The notes beneath the pieces were generated by a model that was given only the letters and a program-made list of their open reading frames with translations, did no database searches and was not told the origin of the DNA. Of a stretch of DNA of 33,448 bases, positions 19,067 to 33,448 are shown in pieces (within the stretch, counting starts at the first letter, position 1; the number at the start of each line of letters is the position of its first letter). Both the position numbers and the translations under genes were made by a program. Source of the DNA: a virus; IMG/VR virus record IMGVR_UViG_3300020000_000048, positions 1-33,448 of that record; one strand, given 5' to 3'.

Positions 19067-19885
19067 ATGGTCATGCCCAAGGGACAGCTCGGCCAGGGCA
19101 ACGCGCCCGGCCGCAAGAGGAACACGATGAACAACATGTCGTCCAAGCAGAACATCCCACTCATCAAGCCCGAGGGCATCAGCGGCGGGAACCTGCCCAC
19201 GCTAGACCCGGCCGCGACCGCCAACTACTACGGCCAGCTCCAGACTCTCCAGTCGCAGCTGTACAACACTCTCGCCGGGCTCCGGCAGCAGAGGGTAGGA
19301 CTGCGCGGGGACGCTAAGGTGATGCGCCAAGACCTCCGGCAGCAGGGCATCGGGCAGATGTCCGAGAGCGTCAACGCCTCCCTGGAGCGTGGGATGCTCG
19401 GCTCCAGCTCGGACCTCTCCAGCCGCGCCGGAATCAAGGCCGATGTCGTCTCCGGCGTAACGGACGTCAACCGGCAGCTGTACGACCAGCTCGCCGAGAA
19501 CAGGCTCGAGGGCTCGGCCGCCTCACTCCAGTACGAGCAGGGCGTCCAGGGCGTCGAGTCGCAGGCAATCGCGCAGCGGATGACGCTCCAACAGCAGGAG
19601 GAGCAGAACCAGCTCCAGATGAAGATTGCCCGCATGCAGGCCCACGCCAGCGAAATCTCCAACGACGCGCAGATGGAGATGGCCCTGAAGCAGCTCCGCG
19701 CGCAGCGGCAGCAAAACAAGGCGCTGCGGCAGATGGCGAACCACCCCGTCAACCCGTATGCGACGCCGGGCAATGGCCGCAACCAGCCTGGTTCCACTGA
19801 CGGCAACTATACCAGGACCGACAGGCGGGCCGACAGGCGTTTGAACGGCCCCGGCGCCCGCTATGGCCCCCACATGTACAGGTAG
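19067..19885 (+). CDS. Internal virion protein 1 (coiled-coil, Gln-rich)
   Basis: Predicted 272-residue protein at the start of the internal-protein block. Residues about 50-225 are helical and very rich in Gln, Met, Arg and Leu (QLQTLQSQLYNTLAGLRQQR, RMTLQQQEEQNQLQMKIARM, MALKQLRAQRQQNKALRQM), a composition typical of ejected core proteins and coiled coils. The C-terminus is disordered, rich in Arg, Asn, Gly and Pro (PNGRNQPGS-like, TDRRADRRLNGPGARYGPHMYR). By analogy with podovirus internal proteins it may line the ejection channel. A second ATG six bases downstream is an alternative start. Confidence 0.78.
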   Translation: MVMPKGQLGQGNAPGRKRNTMNNMSSKQNIPLIKPEGISGGNLPTLDPAATANYYGQLQTLQSQLYNTLAGLRQQRVGLRGDAKVMRQDLRQQGIGQMSESVNASLERGMLGSSSDLSSRAGIKADVVSGVTDVNRQLYDQLAENRLEGSAASLQYEQGVQGVESQAIAQRMTLQQQEEQNQLQMKIARMQAHASEISNDAQMEMALKQLRAQRQQNKALRQMANHPVNPYATPGNGRNQPGSTDGNYTRTDRRADRRLNGPGARYGPHMYR

Positions 19886-21039: not shown

Positions 21040-24000
21040 ATGGTAATGGCCCCGCAGGCATTCCCTGCACCACAGCCGTTCCCAACACCGCAACCGGACC
21101 CGCAGACGTACGGGCTTAGCCCGACCGAGCGGGGGCCGTTCATGCAGCCGTACCTGCCGCCGCCGACGCAGTTCATGTCACCGGCGACTCCTCCGGCGGG
21201 CGGGTCCCTGCTCGACCGGATGACGGCGGTGATGGGCTCCTCGGCGGCGCCTGACAACACGCTCACGCTCGACGACGCGATGGCACAGACCGACAAGGCC
21301 ATCGCCCGGCTCCAACAGGTCAACCCGGAGCTGGCCCAGCAGCTTCAATCGCAGCGGACGAACGTTGACCAGACCCAGGACGACGGTCCCGGCTTCTGGG
21401 GTAGCGTCCTCCAGACGGTGGCGTCGAGCCCGCTTGGCAAGGCGCTCGAGTTCATCAGTCGTCCGGCGCATATCATCCCCGAAATCCTGACGGACTCGGA
21501 GGATGGCGTCTGGAAGAACATTGGGGACGCCCTCTCCGGCCACTCTGACGCGTCCATGATTGATGTCATGGACAAGTACGGCATCCTGTCCGGCCACGAC
21601 ATGTTCTCCTCCATCGCGCAGAGCATCGTCTCGTTCGGGCTCGACATGGCGGTGGACCCCACCACGTACATCACAATGGGCCTCGGTTCTGTTGGCCGCG
21701 CCGCGGCCACCAGGGTCGGGGCCGAAGCTGTATTCAAGAGCACGATGCTCACCAAGGGCGCCACCGCCCTAGACGACCTCGCCGCCCGGGCAGGGGAGTC
21801 CCTCGGTATTGACCTCGCGACGGCCACCGCCGAGGAGTCCCGAGGCGCCGCGCTGAACCTCTTGCTGCACAACGTCACCGAGCAGAGTGCCAGCATGAGC
21901 CGCCTCGGACGGTGGGGCGCCCTCACGAAGGACCTCAGCGTCGTTGACAGGGACTTCGTCGGCGGCCCGTTGAGCCTCGCGCTCAAAGAGGGTGACCGCG
22001 AAATCGTCAACGGCGCCATCAGGTCGATGGACAACGCCCACAAGCTCATCGGGAAGTTCGGGCTGCAGCGCATCGGTCCTGAGATGGCAGAGGCCGCGGG
22101 GATAGACCTGGAGGCGACCAAGGGCGTCCTGCAGGGCATGAAGTCCACGGGCATGTTCGGCTCCCGCGCGGAGTACATGGCCGGTCGCTACGCCTCCGCT
22201 CTCGAAGGCGGGGTGAGGTTCTCCTTCCCAGGCATCCGCATCATCACACCGGCCCTCTGGGGTACCAGCAAGCTCGACTTCAGTCTAGGGCGCCGATTCT
22301 TCTCCGGCTTGTCCGGCCAGCTGCGCATCATGAAGGCCGTTGAGTCCGGCGCGCTCGAAGGGAGCGTGGGGCTCGAGGCTCTCCAGGCCGCGACGGAAGG
22401 CGGGTGGAGCAAGCTCGCCAGCGTCACCCCGCAGGTCGCACAGATGTTCGGCGACGGCGTGAGCGGCCGCGTTGGCACGGCATTCGCCCAGGCTTCGTGG
22501 CAAATCGGCGGCATCACCAGGAACCTGGGCTCGTTCGCTCTCGTGCGTGGCGGCGGCTTCGGGGGCCAGTTGGCCACGGACGCCCGTAAGACGGTGAACA
22601 CGATGAAGAAGGCCCTTCAGGGAGAGGCCATCTCCATCGAGACCCAGAACAGGTTCGCCCCGAGCATCCTTCAGGATGGGGCCGACCAGGGACTCCTACT
22701 GAATGAAGTTGGGGACCCCATCAAGAAGTGGAACGGCGGTACGCTGTCTCAGCCCGCCGTCCAGAGGACGCTGCATGCCAACGAGCGCAAGGTCCTCGCC
22801 GACACCGGCGACGACATGCTGGTCATCAAGCTCCTGGAGGGCCTGCCCTCTGAGGAGGCGCAGGCGATGGGCGCCGACAAGTGGTACGACATGCTCGCGG
22901 ACAACATCCGCCAGCAGGGCCTGCCCGAAGACCAGATGACCTCGATGCTCCAGAAGAACGAGGCGCGCCGCGCACTGGTCAAAGAGGCCGAGGACAAGGC
23001 GACCCCCGAGGCGCTGTACGCCGCCCGCCTGTACCGCGTCATCAGCAACCAGACGCGCACGATGCGCAACGAGCTGACCGGCCACGTCGCCGACTCCACC
23101 ATCCGAACGGCCGACCGGGCAGTCATCAACCCGGCCAACCGGCAGGTGGTCGAGACAGGCCACGCGGCCCAGCACGGCAGAACCTTCGAACTGGAACAGA
23201 GACTGGAGAGCGCCGCCGACACGCCGGGCTTTGGGCTCGAGCACATCACGGACTCGGAGTTCGGGCGCGGCTATGCCGTGCGCGAGGCCGAGGAGGCGTC
23301 GCCTTTCCCCGAGAACCCGAAGGGAGGTGGTCCTCTATCTCCCGAGCCTGACGGGCCTTCAGGCATGTTGCCACCCAAGCTAGAGCCGCCAACACTGCCG
23401 ACTTTGGACCGGGCCGCGCAGCCCGCTGACGAACTGAAGTTCACCCCCGAGCTTGACAAGGTAAAGCAAGACCTCCGCGACTCTATCGGCCTCACGCCGA
23501 AGAAGGATGTCCGTTGGGACCAGCCCGACACCATGACGGCCGAGGAGCTTCAGGACGCCTGGGACCCGCTGGAGCGCATCGCCCCCAAGGAGTACGACGA
23601 GACGCACGGCGGAAGCGCCGCCGCCTTCCGAGATATGCTGGAGAAGGAAGGCCAGAAGGAGCGAGTCCGCATCGTCTACGACCCGGACACGGGCGAGTAC
23701 ATGATGATTGACGGCCACCACAGAGTGGACGTGATGAAAGGCACCGGCAAGCGGCTGCACGTCGAGTGGGTCCCGGACCCCGAGACCATCGCCGACGCCC
23801 GTGCAGGCGGCCTCCCCGTGATGAAGCCCGCCGGTGGCACCCGGCTGACTCACGCCGAGGAGCAGGCCGCCCAGACTGACTTCGTCCAGAACCTCTTGGA
23901 CGCGATGGAAAACGGCGACACCGCCAAACTCGTTGACCTCACGGACGAGGGACCGATGAAGGTCGGGAACTTCACCGAGGCGCGGGACGTGGAGCTGAGC

Positions 24001-27000
24001 GCCGACGTGAGGCAGCTGGCCGCCGCGTTCGGGGTTCCCGAGGACCACCTGGACGCCATCGACAGCTTCGCGCAAATCGAGGCGCTCGACCCAAAGTGGC
24101 AGGAAATGCTCGGTCCGTACGCGAAGCTGGACGAGCTTCCTTCCGAGGTGGACAGCGAATACTGGGCCGCGAAGCTGGACAGCATCGACGCCTGGCACAT
24201 GTCTCGGCATAGCGATGACCCGCGCGTGAAAGAATGGCTCCGCCGCTCGCAGGGCTTGGACTGGGCCGAGAAAGATGAGCTGGCCGGGCACATCTTCGGA
24301 GACCCGCTCTCCGAGGACAGCGCATGGGGTTTGATGCCTCCCAGCGACTACCTGGAAATCATGGGTCCCGGCGCCTTGGACGCCGAGATGTCCTCGATGG
24401 ACGAAATCCTCGGCGAGGCGCTCGGCAAGCGGGCGGCCAACGAGCCCCGGTTCAGGGATATCGTTGGCAAGACGTTCGTCCAGAACCCGGAGCCGGAGAC
24501 CACCGTCGCGAAGTTCAAGGAACCGCTCGGGCGTCCCCGCAAGCGCGCGGTCGTGGCGATGGACAACCCGGTGTACATCAACAAGGACGCCGAGAAGCTC
24601 ATCGCGCAGGGCAAGCGGCCGGTCGCCGACATGAGCGACGTGTACGCCGACGCCGACAAGTTCGCGACCGAGACCATGAAGGCCACTAGCGAGGTATGGG
24701 ACGAGAAGATTCCCGCTCTGCTGGCCGACTCTAAGAAGTGGGCGAAGGTAGACCCGGGCGTGCAGGAGGTCCTGCGCGGCATGGGACTCGACCCCGAGGG
24801 CATGACGCAAGAGATGAAGCGCGTCACCCTGGAGGCCCAGGCCTCCCTCCACGCGCGACTCAAGACCCAGTTCATGCGCGAGATGGGGCACGACGGGGTA
24901 CTCATTCAGGAAGAGGGCAAGCTCCGCGGCGTGGTCTTCGACGGTGGCCTGACCACCGGGCAGAAGGCGCCCATCTGGGAGCTGAGCCAGGACGCCCCGG
25001 TGGACATGCCCGACCTCGGCTTCTATCATCGGCGCATGACGCCGGAGGTCCACGAGCTGATGCGGGGCAAGCCGGGCTTCATCGAGCGCCGGACGCCGGA
25101 GGAGTGGGACGCGGCGATGAGCCGCGAGACCAAGGACATGACGTATTCGGAGGCCGAGGCGCACATTCGGCAGAGTCTCCGTGAGCGCGGCTTCGCCATC
25201 GGTGACGACTACCAGGTCCTCGACCGAGACATCTCCCGGAATATCAACGCCTACGTGGATGGCATGGCGAACGACGCCGGTAGCGTCTTCCTCGGGCGCG
25301 AGGCCAAGCGCCTGGAGCGTCTGGGCCTGACCCGCTCGCCGTACGTCTCGAAGTTCGTCGGCCCGAGGTACGAGGGCACGCCGTCCAAGGCATTCATGAA
25401 CCAGGGCGGCTGGCTCTCGAAGCAGTCGGAGAAGCTCTGGGGCATCTCCCAGAAGGTCGCCCGCATCGAGCAGAGAGACGCGAAGGCGGGGCAGCGCGAG
25501 GTCGAGCACCTCCAGACGACCGTCGCCCAGTTGCACGAGCGCCTCCAGAACAGTCTGGACAAGCAGTCCGAAATGACCGCCCGCGCGCTCGCCGGTTCGT
25601 ACAACCCCGAGAGCGACCTGGGCAGTATGACGCGCGAGGAAGTAGAGCGGTACATGGCGAGGGTCAACAAGAGCCTAGCCAAGGTGGATGCCGAGGACCT
25701 CGGAGACGGTCTGTTCAAGTTCTCGAACAGCAAGCGCGACTACTACTTCACGAAGACCGAAGACGGCCGGGTGGCCGCCTATCGCTGGCGCGACAAGAAC
25801 ACCGGGAACGTTGAGACGATGCGCCTCCCGGACCCGGAGTACAAGGGCCAAGGCTACACGCTGATGAAGCAGGACTTCCAGGACCACGGCATCACGACGC
25901 TCGAGGCCCTGAGGAAGGACATCCGCAACCAGAACCTCTCCCCGCAGGCGACCGAGCTTCGCCGCCGGTACGCGCAGGAGCTACTGGAGAACCTGAAACC
26001 GGGTCTGCGGAAGCAGCTCGACAACCGGAACGACGAGCTGGCTCATGCCGCGATGCGGATGGACTGGCAGACACAGACGATGCGGGACGTGATGGAGGAG
26101 TGGAACCGAATCCGCTTCGGCACCGAGGCCCGAGTCGCCGAGCCGAAGGTCGCGCTGCACATCGGAGACCCGAACCAGGTCGGCATGAGCAAGGTGATGC
26201 TGCCCGGCCTGGACGGCATGTACATGCCCGCCTCGATGGCCGACGAGATGAACTTCGCCGCCCGTGGGTACAAGCACCTCAACGAGTTCCAGAAGACGTG
26301 GCGCCGATTCCTGTCTTTCTGGAAGGAGTGGGCGACCTGGGCTTGGCCCGGCTTCCATGTCCGGAACGCGATGGGCGGCTGGTTCAATAACTGGCTGGGC
26401 GGCGTGCAGTACGAGGACTACGTCGAGACCTTCCGCATGATGCGCGCCCGCCGGGAGATTGAGACCGGCGCCGAGGGCGAGGCCGCCAAGTGGTCCACCC
26501 GGAAGCTCTCCAAGGAGTTCCTCAGCAAGCACGGACTGAAGCAGTACTACTTCGGGTTCGAGCCGACGTACGGAGACCTCTCCGACCTGATGGTGAAGAA
26601 CGGAATCAACGCCGCCAACTCTCGCTCGTTCGGCGAGGCCCGAATCGGGGCCGAGCTTCTCGACAAGGAGATGGAGCGCCCGGCGAACAGCCCGTGGACG
26701 GTGCTCGATACCGCGATGGGCCGCAGTACAACGGTTGGGAAGCCCGGCCGCTTCATAGCTGGCAAGCTGCGCGGCACCGGGGAAATGACCGAGAACATGC
26801 TCCGCGGCGCGAGCTTCCTGCAGGGCATGAAGCAGATGGACGGGGACTTCATGGGTGCCCACCTGTTCACGATGATGAGGCACGGCGACTACGGCGACCT
26901 CTCGGACTGGGAGTACGGCGCCGTCCGAGACGTCCTCCCGTTCTACAAGTGGATGCGGACCAACACCCCGCTCCAGATTCACACGCTGTTCGAGAAGCCT

Positions 27001-27702
27001 GGGAAGCTGATGGCCGTGCTCCACGCGCGCGAGGCGGCGTGGCAGGCAGTCGGCCTGGACGACGAGGACCAGAAGAAGCTCCCGGCATGGATGCAGGAGG
27101 GACTGGTAGTCCCGACACCCGGCAGCACGTCGGAGGCAATGAACCTCGTGACCGCCGACCTGCCGATGAACGACCTGTACCAGGGCGCGGGCGAGTTCTT
27201 CTCACAGGCGCTCCCGCTGCTCCGGCCGTTCCTGGAGAGCTACGTCACCGAGAAATCTCTGTTCACCGGCAAGCCCATCGAGGGCGCCCCAGTGGCGGTG
27301 CCTTGGGTCCCGACCTTCATGGGAAAGATGCTGCAGCACATCGGCATCGGTAAAGTCGGCGCCACCGGCCAGTACTTCATCGACGACAAGCTCCAGAATG
27401 TCCTCGGGGTTGTGCCGGTGTTTAGCCGGTTCCGCAACTGGATTTACGAGGAGCCCACCCGCTCGCACCTTCGCGCGGGCACCATTGTCTCTACGATGGC
27501 GGGCATCGGCCTCCGCCCCTTCGGGGAGACCGACATGAGAAACGAGGAGTTGCGGTTCTACTACGGGCAGGTCCTTCCCCAGATTGAATACCTGAAGGAC
27601 ATGGGGTACCCGGTGCCTACCACCGAGGACCTTAACAACATGTACGGAGCCAGCAACAACGTGCTGCTGGCCGCGGGCGTGAACCCGCAGGGAGGTCTGT
27701 AA
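21040..27702 (+). CDS. Giant polyvalent internal virion protein (2220 residues)
   Basis: One uninterrupted frame. A Pro/Gln-rich start is followed by FGLDMAVDPTTYITMGLGS (about 198-217), a segment typical of large phage internal or polyvalent proteins. D891-G-H-H-R with a preceding strand (VRIVYDPDTGEYMMIDGHHRV in part) resembles the ParB/sulfiredoxin-type nuclease fold. About 1168-1305 has DNPVYIN, then GHDGV (1283-1287) and RGVVFDGG, like ADP-ribosyltransferase-type domains in polyvalent proteins. The C-terminal third has FHVRNAMGGW (1772-1781) and PFYKWMRTNTP (1967-1977), recurrent in this class. It is probably ejected with the DNA and may act on host targets early. Domain assignments are by pattern only. 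Confidence 0.88.
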   Translation: MVMAPQAFPAPQPFPTPQPDPQTYGLSPTERGPFMQPYLPPPTQFMSPATPPAGGSLLDRMTAVMGSSAAPDNTLTLDDAMAQTDKAIARLQQVNPELAQQLQSQRTNVDQTQDDGPGFWGSVLQTVASSPLGKALEFISRPAHIIPEILTDSEDGVWKNIGDALSGHSDASMIDVMDKYGILSGHDMFSSIAQSIVSFGLDMAVDPTTYITMGLGSVGRAAATRVGAEAVFKSTMLTKGATALDDLAARAGESLGIDLATATAEESRGAALNLLLHNVTEQSASMSRLGRWGALTKDLSVVDRDFVGGPLSLALKEGDREIVNGAIRSMDNAHKLIGKFGLQRIGPEMAEAAGIDLEATKGVLQGMKSTGMFGSRAEYMAGRYASALEGGVRFSFPGIRIITPALWGTSKLDFSLGRRFFSGLSGQLRIMKAVESGALEGSVGLEALQAATEGGWSKLASVTPQVAQMFGDGVSGRVGTAFAQASWQIGGITRNLGSFALVRGGGFGGQLATDARKTVNTMKKALQGEAISIETQNRFAPSILQDGADQGLLLNEVGDPIKKWNGGTLSQPAVQRTLHANERKVLADTGDDMLVIKLLEGLPSEEAQAMGADKWYDMLADNIRQQGLPEDQMTSMLQKNEARRALVKEAEDKATPEALYAARLYRVISNQTRTMRNELTGHVADSTIRTADRAVINPANRQVVETGHAAQHGRTFELEQRLESAADTPGFGLEHITDSEFGRGYAVREAEEASPFPENPKGGGPLSPEPDGPSGMLPPKLEPPTLPTLDRAAQPADELKFTPELDKVKQDLRDSIGLTPKKDVRWDQPDTMTAEELQDAWDPLERIAPKEYDETHGGSAAAFRDMLEKEGQKERVRIVYDPDTGEYMMIDGHHRVDVMKGTGKRLHVEWVPDPETIADARAGGLPVMKPAGGTRLTHAEEQAAQTDFVQNLLDAMENGDTAKLVDLTDEGPMKVGNFTEARDVELSADVRQLAAAFGVPEDHLDAIDSFAQIEALDPKWQEMLGPYAKLDELPSEVDSEYWAAKLDSIDAWHMSRHSDDPRVKEWLRRSQGLDWAEKDELAGHIFGDPLSEDSAWGLMPPSDYLEIMGPGALDAEMSSMDEILGEALGKRAANEPRFRDIVGKTFVQNPEPETTVAKFKEPLGRPRKRAVVAMDNPVYINKDAEKLIAQGKRPVADMSDVYADADKFATETMKATSEVWDEKIPALLADSKKWAKVDPGVQEVLRGMGLDPEGMTQEMKRVTLEAQASLHARLKTQFMREMGHDGVLIQEEGKLRGVVFDGGLTTGQKAPIWELSQDAPVDMPDLGFYHRRMTPEVHELMRGKPGFIERRTPEEWDAAMSRETKDMTYSEAEAHIRQSLRERGFAIGDDYQVLDRDISRNINAYVDGMANDAGSVFLGREAKRLERLGLTRSPYVSKFVGPRYEGTPSKAFMNQGGWLSKQSEKLWGISQKVARIEQRDAKAGQREVEHLQTTVAQLHERLQNSLDKQSEMTARALAGSYNPESDLGSMTREEVERYMARVNKSLAKVDAEDLGDGLFKFSNSKRDYYFTKTEDGRVAAYRWRDKNTGNVETMRLPDPEYKGQGYTLMKQDFQDHGITTLEALRKDIRNQNLSPQATELRRRYAQELLENLKPGLRKQLDNRNDELAHAAMRMDWQTQTMRDVMEEWNRIRFGTEARVAEPKVALHIGDPNQVGMSKVMLPGLDGMYMPASMADEMNFAARGYKHLNEFQKTWRRFLSFWKEWATWAWPGFHVRNAMGGWFNNWLGGVQYEDYVETFRMMRARREIETGAEGEAAKWSTRKLSKEFLSKHGLKQYYFGFEPTYGDLSDLMVKNGINAANSRSFGEARIGAELLDKEMERPANSPWTVLDTAMGRSTTVGKPGRFIAGKLRGTGEMTENMLRGASFLQGMKQMDGDFMGAHLFTMMRHGDYGDLSDWEYGAVRDVLPFYKWMRTNTPLQIHTLFEKPGKLMAVLHAREAAWQAVGLDDEDQKKLPAWMQEGLVVPTPGSTSEAMNLVTADLPMNDLYQGAGEFFSQALPLLRPFLESYVTEKSLFTGKPIEGAPVAVPWVPTFMGKMLQHIGIGKVGATGQYFIDDKLQNVLGVVPVFSRFRNWIYEEPTRSHLRAGTIVSTMAGIGLRPFGETDMRNEELRFYYGQVLPQIEYLKDMGYPVPTTEDLNNMYGASNNVLLAAGVNPQGGL

Positions 27703-28157
27703 TGGCACTCGAGACTAAGGACACCAAGTTCGGCAAGGTCTTCCGGCTGGCCGGAGGCTGCAAGGACGACTTCGAGAACATCGTGACGAGCCGGTTCTAC
27801 CGGAAGCCGTCGGGGGTCATCCCTCATCGGCTCCGGCACATTTCCATCACGATGCAGCGCCCGGCCATCGAGGCTCTGCGCGTTGTCGAGGCCCATCTCG
27901 GTCAGGAAGTGAAGGTCACCGGCAGCGCGCGCACCTGCGAGTTGCAGGCGCAGCTGTACGCGAAAGACCCGAAGCGGTACGCGCCACCGAGCGTCGGCCT
28001 GCACTGCCAGGCCCTCGCCATCGACGTGGATACCGTCTGGCGGGACAGCCTCTCCAACAAGGACGAGGAGGAGTTCGTGAAGCTGATGAAGCAGGTCGGC
28101 TTTACCCAGGCCCGGCCCGATGAGCCGTGGCACTGGAGCTTCGGCTGGACGGCGTAG
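27702..28157 (+). CDS. M15-type peptidase, probable endolysin
   Basis: Predicted 151-residue zinc peptidase of the D-Ala-D-Ala carboxypeptidase/L-alanyl-D-Glu endopeptidase type that cuts peptidoglycan cross-links. GSARTCELQAQLY, then SVGLHCQALAIDVD supplies H101 and D108; PWHWSFGW supplies H144, the third zinc ligand. D141-xx-W-H-W fits the usual acidic residue before the last His. Length matches a single catalytic domain with no cell-wall-binding module. The start overlaps the stop of the giant protein by one base (TAATG). Three small membrane proteins follow, so lysis is the likeliest role; a virion-associated wall-opening role is also possible. Confidence 0.88.
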   Translation: MALETKDTKFGKVFRLAGGCKDDFENIVTSRFYRKPSGVIPHRLRHISITMQRPAIEALRVVEAHLGQEVKVTGSARTCELQAQLYAKDPKRYAPPSVGLHCQALAIDVDTVWRDSLSNKDEEEFVKLMKQVGFTQARPDEPWHWSFGWTA

Positions 28158-28158
28158 C

Positions 28159-28422
28159 ATGACGACCGACAACGGCGACCAGGGCTTCAGGATTACCACC
28201 GGGGTACTCTACACCAAGATAGAGGGCCTTGAGAAAGAGGTGGCCAGCCTGAAGACGGCGCAGGAGGTGGCGAACGCCACGATGCTCGCGGCCATAGCGG
28301 GCATGACCGACAACCGCACCAGACTAGAGAAGCTCGAAGGACGTATGAATGGGGTCTTCGTCGGTATTGGTGCCGGTGTCTTGACTGCCCTCGTTGCCGT
28401 CTTCCGGGGGGTGATTGGATAA
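28159..28422 (+). CDS. Small coiled-coil protein with C-terminal membrane segment (holin/XhlA-like)
   Basis: Predicted 87-residue protein starting one base after the peptidase stop. Residues about 15-63 form a coiled coil (YTKIEGLEKEVASLKTAQEV, TRLEKLEGRM). A C-terminal transmembrane helix follows (VFVGIGAGVLTALVAVF). This layout is that of XhlA-like haemolysin/holin partners in Gram-positive phages. An upstream ATG at 28120 inside the peptidase gene was rejected. TAATG overlaps the next gene. Likely lysis accessory; which gene is the true holin cannot be told from sequence alone. Confidence 0.8.
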   Translation: MTTDNGDQGFRITTGVLYTKIEGLEKEVASLKTAQEVANATMLAAIAGMTDNRTRLEKLEGRMNGVFVGIGAGVLTALVAVFRGVIG

Positions 28423-28790
28423 TGACAGAGCACGAGCAAGAACTCAACGGCGTGGGTCACGGGCAGCATGAGCACGCGACGGTGGAAGTCCCTATTGCCA
28501 ACTTCCTCGGAGCCCGGACAAAACCGACCTTCAAGGACCAAGCACTTGCGACGCTACGGACCATTGTCTCCGGCGCCGTCATCGCCCTCATCATCGTCGT
28601 GGGGGTGACCGTCGCTTTCCATGGCCAGACGGCCGAGCAGAAGCAGGTTCAGGACGACACCCTGCACGCCAACCTCGCGCAGGCTTGCGTACTCGCCCTG
28701 CCGGTCACCGACACCGGCCGGGACCCCCAGGACGTAGAGGAGTGCTTCACCCAGTACGGGCTCGAGGCTCCCCTGCTCCACAAACCATAG
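28422..28790 (+). CDS. Single-pass membrane protein of lysis region
   Basis: Predicted 122-residue protein. A charged His/Glu-rich N-terminus (MTEHEQELNGVGHGQHEHAT) precedes one strong membrane helix at about 49-67 (GAVIALIIVVGVTVAF). The C-terminal ~55 residues are probably extracytoplasmic and contain two Cys (ACVLALP, EECFTQY) that could form a disulphide. Coupled to the previous gene by TAATG. It may be a holin regulator or a wall-side lysis factor. Family not recognised. Confidence 0.78.
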   Translation: MTEHEQELNGVGHGQHEHATVEVPIANFLGARTKPTFKDQALATLRTIVSGAVIALIIVVGVTVAFHGQTAEQKQVQDDTLHANLAQACVLALPVTDTGRDPQDVEECFTQYGLEAPLLHKP

Positions 28791-32203: not shown

Positions 32204-32472
32204 AGGTACTGTCCTCCCGTGTACTCGTTGGTGTTGCCCCGGCCCGCCTGCGCCCGGGGGTCGCCCTCCGCGAGCGTCGGCATCTGACGCACGACGCTCT
32301 CGAACGGCACGGACCGGAAGGTGCAGCGGCTATCCTTCGTCAGCTGCTTTGCCACCTTGTCGGCCAGCTCTTGACCGAGCATGGGACCCATGCTCTGGTG
32401 GAAGTCGGTGCAGACCACGATGTAGAGGTTATCGAAGTCCCCGGGCTGGCCCTGCTCGATTCGTTGGCTCAC
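32200..32472 (-). CDS. 90-residue hypothetical protein
   Basis: GTG start at 32472 overlaps the polymerase stop as GTGA, with AAGGAAG just upstream. FDNLYIVVCTDFHQSMGPML, then ELADKVAKQLTKDSRCTFRS has a beta-alpha-beta look. Two cysteines are present (VVCTD, SRCTF). The C-terminus is polar (GRGNTNEYTGGQYL). The frame extends further upstream inside the polymerase gene, but that part is Arg/Pro-rich shadow. Function unknown. Confidence 0.75.
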   Translation of the reverse strand: MSQRIEQGQPGDFDNLYIVVCTDFHQSMGPMLGQELADKVAKQLTKDSRCTFRSVPFESVVRQMPTLAEGDPRAQAGRGNTNEYTGGQYL

Positions 32473-33448
32473 TTGGCTTCCTTCCAGCTCCGCACCATCT
32501 TCGGTTCGAAGACGATGGGCACTCGTAGCTTGTACTTCTCGGACATTCCCTCTGCGATGTGGCGGAACTGCATCAGCTCGGAGTGCGGGAAGCCCTCCTC
32601 CCGGACGAGGTACAAGCCCTCGTCGTGGACGGCTGCGCACGCCTTCCAGTGCGGGAGCTGGCGGGCCACTTCTACCAGGGTGTCCTGGCAGATGTCTGCC
32701 GCGCTCCCCTGAATCTTACTGTTCACCGCCTGCCGCTCCGCCTTCCAGCTCTCTGAGAAGTCGATGTGCCTGCGGTGACCGGCGATGGTAGTAACATACC
32801 CCAGCGACCGGCCTTCCGAGATTGCCGCGTCCTTCCACTCCCAGAACACGGAGTAGAGGTTGATGATGCCGTCGTACGCCTCCTCGACCTTCTTCAGCGG
32901 GAACCGGAATCCCTCCTCCGCGAGATTGTTCCGAATCTTCGGCGGCTGCGCGCCGTACGCCAGCGCGAGGAAGCAGGTACGTACGAGCTGCCGCTCCGGT
33001 GTACCCTTCGGATAGCGCTTTCCAAGTACACCCACAGTAGCTTGCTCATAGATGTCCACCTTGTCCCAGAACGCCTCCAGCATCTTCGGGTCGCCGGAGA
33101 AGTGCGCCATTAGCCGTGGCTCGATTTGGTTGAAGTCGCCATCCACGAACATGTACCCGGGCGGCGCCACGAACAGGCCCCGGATGAGCGAGCCGTAGTG
33201 GCCTCGGCTCGGGACGTTCTGGAGGTTCACCGGGTCGCTGCTGCTAAGCCTGCCCGTGGCCGTACCCGTCTGGTTGAAGTGCGTGTACAGCCTGCCGTTC
33301 CTCTGCTCTTTCAACCACACCGAGAGGAACTGGTCCACCTTCTCCAGCTGCTTGAACTCGCAGAACGATTCGACCCACGGGTCATCGGCGTGGTGGACCT
33401 TCAATACCTTGGCCGCCACGGACGGGAGGCACTGCGAGCCGTCTCTCG
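32469..33448 (-). CDS. Family A DNA polymerase, C-terminal part (truncated by window edge)
   Basis: The frame is open to the window end, so the N-terminal part lies outside; the GTG at 33419 is probably internal. Residues here are numbered from that GTG. TGTATGRLSSSDPVNLQNVP is the typical thumb/palm entry. Motif A is D95-FNQIEPR. Motif B is R143-QLV-R147-TCF-L151-ALA-Y155-G. Motif C is V264-H-D-E267. The catalytic acids D95, D266 and E267 are present. In E. coli Pol I numbering the motif B residues correspond to 754, 758, 762 and 766, so the usual Lys758 is Arg and Phe762 is Leu. This is the replicative polymerase candidate and the most upstream gene visible in the minus operon. Confidence 0.93.
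   Translation of the reverse strand, partial: RDGSQCLPSVAAKVLKVHHADDPWVESFCEFKQLEKVDQFLSVWLKEQRNGRLYTHFNQTGTATGRLSSSDPVNLQNVPSRGHYGSLIRGLFVAPPGYMFVDGDFNQIEPRLMAHFSGDPKMLEAFWDKVDIYEQATVGVLGKRYPKGTPERQLVRTCFLALAYGAQPPKIRNNLAEEGFRFPLKKVEEAYDGIINLYSVFWEWKDAAISEGRSLGYVTTIAGHRRHIDFSESWKAERQAVNSKIQGSAADICQDTLVEVARQLPHWKACAAVHDEGLYLVREEGFPHSELMQFRHIAEGMSEKYKLRVPIVFEPKMVRSWKEAK

What the first reader, a model, noticed from the sequence alone, without database searches (positions are those of the whole stretch)
21040..27702. 2220-residue internal protein with possible ParB-like and ADP-ribosyltransferase-like modules
Besides the podovirus core-protein signatures, a DGHHR motif (residues 891-895) resembles ParB/sulfiredoxin-fold enzymes. 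A DNPVYIN to GHDGV to RGVVFDGG stretch (about 1168-1305) resembles the end of ADP-ribosyltransferase-type domains in polyvalent proteins. If ejected with the DNA, these would be enzymes delivered before any phage gene is expressed, perhaps to modify host RNA polymerase or block defence.
Basis: partly seen in the sequence, partly recalled or inferred. Interest (0 to 1): 0.7.

Follow-up and report, generated by a model that had tools for sequence, protein, structure and literature searches.

The report
Phage ejection protein carrying ParB-like cargo
This giant protein of a short-tailed phage looks like one of the proteins a phage pushes into its host together with its DNA, and it carries a ParB-like nucleotide-binding domain in a slot where relatives carry other enzymes, while the suspected ADP-ribosyltransferase is only a fragment of a match.

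Summary
The ORF (21040-27702, 2220 aa) and the quoted motifs are real; DGHHR is at 891-895. By sequence and gene order the protein belongs to a family of large "hypothetical" proteins of actinobacterial podoviruses (ctEqG8, Shocker, DS1, Casserole) and 22 IMG/VR loci. It is the third of three consecutive genes (272, 376, 2220 aa) between tail and lysis genes, as in P22 7-20-16 and T7 14-15-16. New here: it has no cysteine, and 22 non-redundant members have 1 in 35,435 aa (about 167 expected), like T7 gp15/16, P22 gp7/20/16 and N4-type vRNAP. That supports ejection into the host.

ParB-like: supported. Profile match E 1.5e-7 (next best other window 0.014); AlphaFold model (pLDDT 76) whose leading PDB matches are all ParB/sulfiredoxin fold.

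ADP-ribosyltransferase (ART)-like: only the C-terminal end (1255-1301) resembles phage ARTs (E 5e-4; shuffles 0.01-0.11). The catalytic His and Tyr motifs were not found and fold prediction failed.

Relatives swap modules in the middle region: GNAT+ParB+ART-end (L006), ART-like+ParB (L022), ParB only (L023, L015), none (ctEqG8). Verdict: a Cys-free, polyvalent-type podoviral ejection protein.

The parts
21040..27702 (+). Large internal/ejection protein, 2220 aa, no cysteine
   Evidence: homologs
21388..21681 (+). N-terminal family anchor, residues 117-214 (SSPLGKALEFISRP ... FGLDMAVDPTTY)
   Evidence: blastp to ctEqG8 UOF81946 E 6.6e-4 and to other members; L006 about 68% identical in this block
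23503..23844 (+). ParB/sulfiredoxin-fold domain, residues about 822-935 (core 845-928), with DGHHR at 891-895
24802..24942 (+). ART-end-like segment, residues 1255-1301 (LKTQFMREMGHDGVLIQEEGKLRGVVFD); N-terminal half of an ART not found
24097..24369 (+). Helical bundle, residues about 1020-1110, the only confident part of the 800-1345 model; contains conserved IDAWHxSR inside a helix
25567..25899 (+). Lineage-specific insert, residues about 1510-1620, absent from L006; no Pfam match
26197..27309 (+). C-terminal family anchor, residues 1720-2090 (WPGFHVRN ... EMT ... PFYKWMRTNTP)
   Evidence: tblastn/blastp to ctEqG8, Shocker, DS1 and 22 IMG/VR loci
19067..19885 (+). 272-aa Cys-free protein, first of the three-gene ejection-type module (position of P22 gp7 / T7 gp14)
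   Evidence: 55% identical in L006
19895..21025 (+). 376-aa Cys-free protein, second of the module (position of P22 gp20 / T7 gp15)
   Evidence: 37% identical in L006
2186..4030 (+). Portal protein of SU10/P22 type (podovirus marker)
   Evidence: PF23899 49.8 bits and PF16510 36.6 bits, both over cut-off
27702..28157 (+). Probable cell-wall peptidase/endolysin gene directly downstream, as in Shocker, DS1 and Casserole
   Evidence: weak endolysin hit phrog_465 E 0.049; synteny; M15-like motifs read by eye

Best explanation
The 2220-aa protein is the largest of three internal virion proteins of a P22/SU10-type podovirus, ejected into the host cell with the DNA. Its conserved N- and C-terminal parts serve the virion and the DNA-entry conduit. 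Between them lies a variable region that carries a ParB/sulfiredoxin-fold nucleotide-binding domain (about 822-935) and, further on, a segment resembling the end of an ART (1255-1301). Relatives hold other modules (GNAT, a fuller ART-like domain, ParB alone, or none) in the corresponding stretch, so the region acts as an interchangeable cargo bay, as in polyvalent proteins. Most likely mechanism: the Cys-free chain unfolds, passes the portal and tail and refolds, and the ParB-like domain then acts in the host before phage gene expression as a nucleotide-binding, DNA-acting module (nicking nuclease or NTP-dependent clamp). Shown here by computation: family, gene order, lack of cysteine, ParB/Srx fold, module exchange among relatives. 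Inferred: ejection, nucleotide binding, action on DNA, any role in takeover or counter-defence. The confidence given is for 'ejection-type protein with a ParB/Srx-fold domain in a variable cargo region'; the specific enzymatic action is much less certain (about 0.4).
For: Homologs at matching positions in ctEqG8, Shocker, DS1 and Casserole; Jasminevirus (Casserole's genus) has podoviral virions by EM (PMC5794937, PMC5513430). Portal of SU10/P22 type. Ejection-type gene module followed by a lysin. No cysteine in 2220 aa, and 1 in 35,435 aa of 22 non-redundant members against about 167 expected. T7 gp15/gp16, P22 gp7/gp20/gp16 and an N4-like vRNAP also have none, and lack of cysteine in vRNAPs has been linked to injection (PMC2784036, PMC3915230). 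ParB: hhalign E 1.5e-7 against ParB domains of L015/L022/L023, next unrelated window 0.014. L022/L023/L015 match PF02195 at E 2e-6 to 2e-5 per genome; L006's domain matches ParB PHROGs at 2.3e-4. Marginal PDB profile hit to the SerK/SbnI group. AF2 pLDDT 76, leading Foldseek hits all ParB/Srx, VIA Z 7.1 to sulfiredoxin and 6.0 to ParB. Module exchange: L006 GNAT, PF00583 24.7 bits over cut-off; L022 against L023/L015.
Against: No virion proteomics. P0001's own ParB domain has no ParB match in Pfam, and the AF2 alignment included the ParB rows of L015/L022/L023, so that model is not independent of the sequence match. Sequence homology to T7 gp16 was not detected among PDB chains. No transmembrane-like stretch reaches the usual threshold (best 19-residue Kyte-Doolittle mean 1.06), although T7-type gp16 proteins are expected to cross the inner membrane.
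Confidence: 0.78

Rival explanations
1. As best explanation, but the protein also carries a complete, active HYD-type ART around 1050-1305 whose first half is too divergent to be recognised, ejected to ADP-ribosylate a host target as T4 Alt does.
For: In-register match of 1255-1301 to the end of an independent 11-sequence phage ART profile, E 5e-4 against 0.078 for other windows and 0.01-0.11 for shuffles; conserved D1285 in GHDG plausibly corresponds to the strand-5 Asp of polyvalent ARTs (PMC5512222); L006 combines GNAT and this segment, and GNAT-ART neighbours are described as typical of polyvalent proteins; an ART-like insert exists in relative L022.
Against: No His (strand 1) or Tyr (strand 2) motif found: the N-half profile gives nothing at 940-1250; the one WHxSR candidate lies in a confident helix; PF18760 no match at E up to 10; fold prediction failed.
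Confidence: 0.2
2. The ART-end-like segment is a decayed remnant of an ART or a chance beta-hairpin, structural only; the ParB-like domain is likewise a structural or DNA-binding part of the ejection machine rather than an enzyme aimed at the host.
For: Missing catalytic half; the stretch 960-1310 is well conserved between P0001 and L006 (about 50%), as a structural part might be; T7 gp16-C binds DNA without a known enzyme (PMC8954989).
Against: Gain and loss of ParB, GNAT and ART-like modules in the middle region of relatives looks like cargo, not obligatory structure; DGHHR is kept in both sequences.
Confidence: 0.35
3. Not an ejected protein but a non-ejected structural, tail or scaffold protein of the virion.
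For: No proteomic data; annotated as hypothetical in all relatives.
Against: Gene order, three consecutive Cys-free proteins, and Cys absence across the family where several other proteins of the same phages do have cysteine. Some other structural proteins of the window also lack cysteine, so the sign is strong for the 2220-aa chain and the family, weaker for small proteins.
Confidence: 0.12

Closest known systems
Large Cys-free protein of actinobacterial podoviruses (ctEqG8 UOF81946, Shocker gp37, DS1 QSJ04773, Casserole gp27)
   Same: Conserved N- and C-terminal anchors, position before the lysin gene (Shocker, DS1, Casserole), no cysteine
   Different: ctEqG8 is only 1106 aa and lacks the middle modules; the others hold unrelated, unassigned middles; all annotated 'hypothetical'
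Podoviral ejection proteins P22 gp16 / T7 gp16
   Same: Third of three consecutive genes, largest member, no cysteine; modular enzyme domains are known there (T7 transglycosylase; PMC8954989)
   Different: No detectable sequence similarity in PDB chains; cargo is ParB-like instead of transglycosylase; size 2220 against 609-1318 aa
Polyvalent proteins (Iyer et al. 2017, PMC5512222), including N4-like vRNAP with an ART and DdrB-like ParB
   Same: Very large ejected-type protein with interchangeable, unrelated enzyme domains (ParB, GNAT, ART)
   Different: Set in a P22/SU10-type podoviral ejection protein family; in the window itself only the ParB-like domain is secure
Sulfiredoxin / ParB N-domain / free serine kinase SerK / SbnI
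   Same: Fold and the G-x-x-R pocket motif (DGHHR)
   Different: No helix-turn-helix or C-terminal ParB domains recognised; no Srx cysteine; activity unknown
T4 Alt (virion ART)
   Same: Only the idea: an enzyme delivered with the DNA
   Different: Alt is an R-S-E ART (PMC5512222); the window segment lacks a recognisable ART first half

Membership tests
ParB/sulfiredoxin superfamily | ParB/Srx alpha+beta fold | tested here: met
   AF2 pLDDT 76, leading Foldseek hits all ParB/Srx; VIA Z 7.1 Srx (rmsd 3.6, 88 aligned), 6.0 ParB (rmsd 3.4, 78 aligned); alignment included ParB rows of relatives
ParB/sulfiredoxin superfamily | Conserved Arg of the nucleotide pocket (GxxR/GHxR) | tested here: met
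   DGHHR in P0001 and L006, NGHNR/DGHNR in L022, L023, L015; G, H and R invariant
ParB/sulfiredoxin superfamily | Score over the Pfam ParB_N (PF02195) curated cut-off | tested here: not met
   No match in the window; L022/L023/L015 at E 2e-6 to 2e-5 but below cut-off. This is a cut-off, not a defining trait of the superfamily
Canonical ParB partition protein | HTH and dimerisation domains after the N-domain | tested here: not met
   No Pfam or PHROG match for these in P0001
DdrB-like ParB DNase | Lineage-specific helix and strand-2 Asp/Asn; nuclease activity | not tested
   Described in PMC5512222; family alignment not compared here
Polyvalent ART (HYD clade, PF18760) | His in strand 1 | tested here: not met
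   No site at 940-1250 by N-half profile; WHxSR sits in a predicted helix
Polyvalent ART (HYD clade, PF18760) | Tyr in strand 2 | tested here: not met
   No G-x-Y/F-F-[ST] element found
Polyvalent ART (HYD clade, PF18760) | Asp in strand 5 (GxDG) with following hairpin | tested here: met
   GHDGV...VVFD, in-register profile match E 5e-4; that the GxDG Asp is the strand-5 Asp is my reading
Polyvalent ART (HYD clade, PF18760) | ART fold | tested here: inconclusive
   Model of 800-1345 has mean pLDDT 42 with two sequences
Podoviral ejection protein (gp16-like) | Third of three consecutive internal-protein genes between tail and lysis genes | tested here: met
Podoviral ejection protein (gp16-like) | Absence of cysteine, as in known ejected proteins | tested here: met
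Podoviral ejection protein (gp16-like) | Sequence or fold homology to T7/P22 gp16 | tested here: inconclusive
   A5 profile finds no such PDB chain; folds not compared
Podoviral ejection protein (gp16-like) | Presence in virion and ejection into host | not testable with these tools
   needs virion proteomics and infection assays
Polyvalent protein | Two or more unrelated enzyme domains in one phage-delivered chain | tested here: inconclusive
   Window: one secure domain plus an ART end; L006 has GNAT plus ParB; L022 ParB plus ART-like (ART by motif)

The most novel reading that the evidence does not exclude
The podoviral ejection protein contains an interchangeable cargo bay through which (actinobacterial) podoviruses deliver, before any gene expression, sets of enzymes (ParB-like nuclease/NTPase, acetyltransferase, ART) that act together on the host, with this window carrying an active ParB-like enzyme and a highly diverged but active ART.
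Probability: 0.15. Interest if true: 0.75.

Novelty: new variant of a known kind. Interest (0 to 1): 0.52.

Why it matters
Sequenced actinobacterial podoviruses are few and their largest virion-type protein is annotated as hypothetical. The data here give that protein a likely ejection role and show that enzyme-like domains come and go in its middle region, including a closely related pair (L022 with, L023 without an ART-like domain) that would make the effect of one delivered domain directly testable. The family-wide loss of cysteine is also a simple sequence test for ejected proteins.

Tried and rejected
Whole-protein Pfam, PHROG and PDB searches of P0001 gave nothing useful. More relatives of the middle region: scans with A3, A4, A7 and A8 returned only L006's contig or the query contigs; genome contigs gave none. 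AF2 of 800-1345 with two rows was poor and its Foldseek matches are meaningless. WHxSR (around 1054) was considered as an ART/PARP-like first motif and rejected because it is predicted helical. PF18760 does not detect L022 or L010 either, so the ART label of L022 (FHGS ... LYTSTDKTVAETY ... GIDGL) rests on motifs and register, not on a significant score. L010's YHAT segment is by eye only. A possible relation of the C-terminal anchor to N4-like vRNAP C-termini was tested and not supported. An AAA_16 hit in one unnamed relative (E 1.1e-4) did not reappear when the middles or other members were scanned singly and was dropped. Small slip: the L022 ParB queries had a few stray residues typed in front of the domain, outside the aligned stretch; searches do not contain them.
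Full report
OBSERVATION. The ORF 21040-27702 is open, 2220 aa, with the quoted motifs at the stated places. The record is a 33,448-base IMG/VR virus contig. Its genes include terminase, portal and major head protein, a portal of SU10/P22 type and an SU10-type adaptor, both over Pfam cut-offs, tail fibres, and a DNA polymerase on the minus strand at the right end.

FAMILY. tblastn gives one annotated relative directly (ctEqG8, 1106 aa) and through it Shocker, DS1 and Casserole. Pairwise comparison shows two conserved anchors, residues 117-214 and about 1720-2090, and a middle without similarity. A profile of the C-terminal anchor brought 22 IMG/VR loci, with open frames of 1104 to 2252 aa. Jasmine and Adat, of Casserole's genus, are podoviruses by electron microscopy.

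EJECTION. In the window the large gene follows two Cys-free genes of 272 and 376 aa and precedes a probable lysin gene; Shocker, DS1 and Casserole are arranged alike, and P22 (7, 20, 16) and T7 (14, 15, 16) have the same kind of order. P0001 has no cysteine in 2220 residues; about 10 are expected from neighbouring genes and about 26 from its own codon-position composition. Over 22 non-redundant members read from the first Met there is one cysteine in 35,435 residues, against about 167 expected. T7 gp15 and gp16, P22 gp7, gp20 and gp16 and the Roseovarius podovirus vRNAP have none, while DNA polymerases, a capsid protein and several other proteins of the same phages do. Lack of cysteine in N4-like vRNAPs has been reported and connected with injection (PMC2784036, PMC3915230). 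I take this as good indirect evidence for ejection; it is not proof.

PARB-LIKE DOMAIN. The segment around 829-920 alone gives no ParB hit in Pfam, but L006's counterpart has a weak ParBc_2 match and ParB PHROG matches down to 2.3e-4. Relatives L022, L023 and L015 carry a clearer ParB domain (PF02195 E 2e-6 to 2e-5 per genome; PHROG 6e-11 for L022). hhalign of P0001/L006 windows against these finds only the region from about 857 on, E 1.5e-7, the best other window 0.014. A PDB profile search puts ParB/Srx-fold kinases first, at marginal E. The AF2 model of 822-935 with five rows has pLDDT 76 (core 85-90); the leading Foldseek matches are ParB, KorB, Noc, sulfiredoxin or SerK, and VIA gives Z 7.1 for sulfiredoxin. 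Z under 8 is modest, but no unrelated fold is mixed among the listed rows. The Gly, His and Arg of DGHHR are invariant in the five rows.

ART-LIKE SEGMENT. An ART profile was built from 11 phage sequences, starting from the Roseovarius podovirus vRNAP ART, which PF18760 recognises. Against P0001/L006 its best match is 1255-1301, aligned to the profile's end, E 5e-4; other windows 0.078, reversed 0.23, six shuffles 0.01 to 0.11. The profile's first half finds nothing in the expected stretch. Polyvalent ARTs use His, Tyr and Asp (PMC5512222); only the Asp has a likely counterpart (D1285). The 800-1345 model is poor.

DOMAIN EXCHANGE. L006, about 46-68% identical over long stretches, has an extra GNAT domain just before the ParB-like one (PF00583 over cut-off as a fragment). 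L022 and L023, alike along most of their length, differ by a clean insert of about 225 aa in L022 holding FHGS, LYTSTDKTVAETY and GIDGL, the H, Y and D motifs of polyvalent ARTs in the right order, directly before the shared ParB domain; L015 also lacks it. ctEqG8, L007 and L008 (1104-1120 aa) have only a short middle. The window protein has its own 110-aa insert (1510-1620) not in L006.

COMPARISON AND NOVELTY. Polyvalent proteins with ParB, GNAT and ART domains are known (PMC5512222), ARTs are found in only about 3% of podoviruses (PMC9503650), and enzyme domains in podoviral ejection proteins are known for cell-wall cleavage (PMC8954989). I found no description in the searched papers of this actinophage family as polyvalent ejection proteins, with the limit that most subscription papers are not held. 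I file it as a new variant of a known kind.

Noticed in passing
L006 protein residues about 800-900 (about L006:7120-7420): GNAT acetyltransferase domain inserted just before the ParB-like domain in the closest relative, absent from the window protein.
   Followed up: partly
L022 residues about 798-1027 against L023 and L015: Clean ART-like domain insertion between closely related ejection-type proteins; H, Y, D motifs by eye, no significant profile score.
   Followed up: partly
window 25567-25899: 110-aa insert in the large protein, absent from L006, no Pfam match.
   Followed up: partly
L010 residues about 477-620: YHAT ... GLYV segment that may be another ART-like domain in the same variable region.
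   Followed up: partly
window 27702-28790: Probable M15-like peptidase (endolysin) followed by two small proteins with hydrophobic stretches, perhaps holins.
   Followed up: no
window 32469-33446 (-): DNA polymerase running off the end of the contig (phrog_17, E 2e-70), so the record is a fragment of a larger genome; no tRNA found.
   Followed up: no
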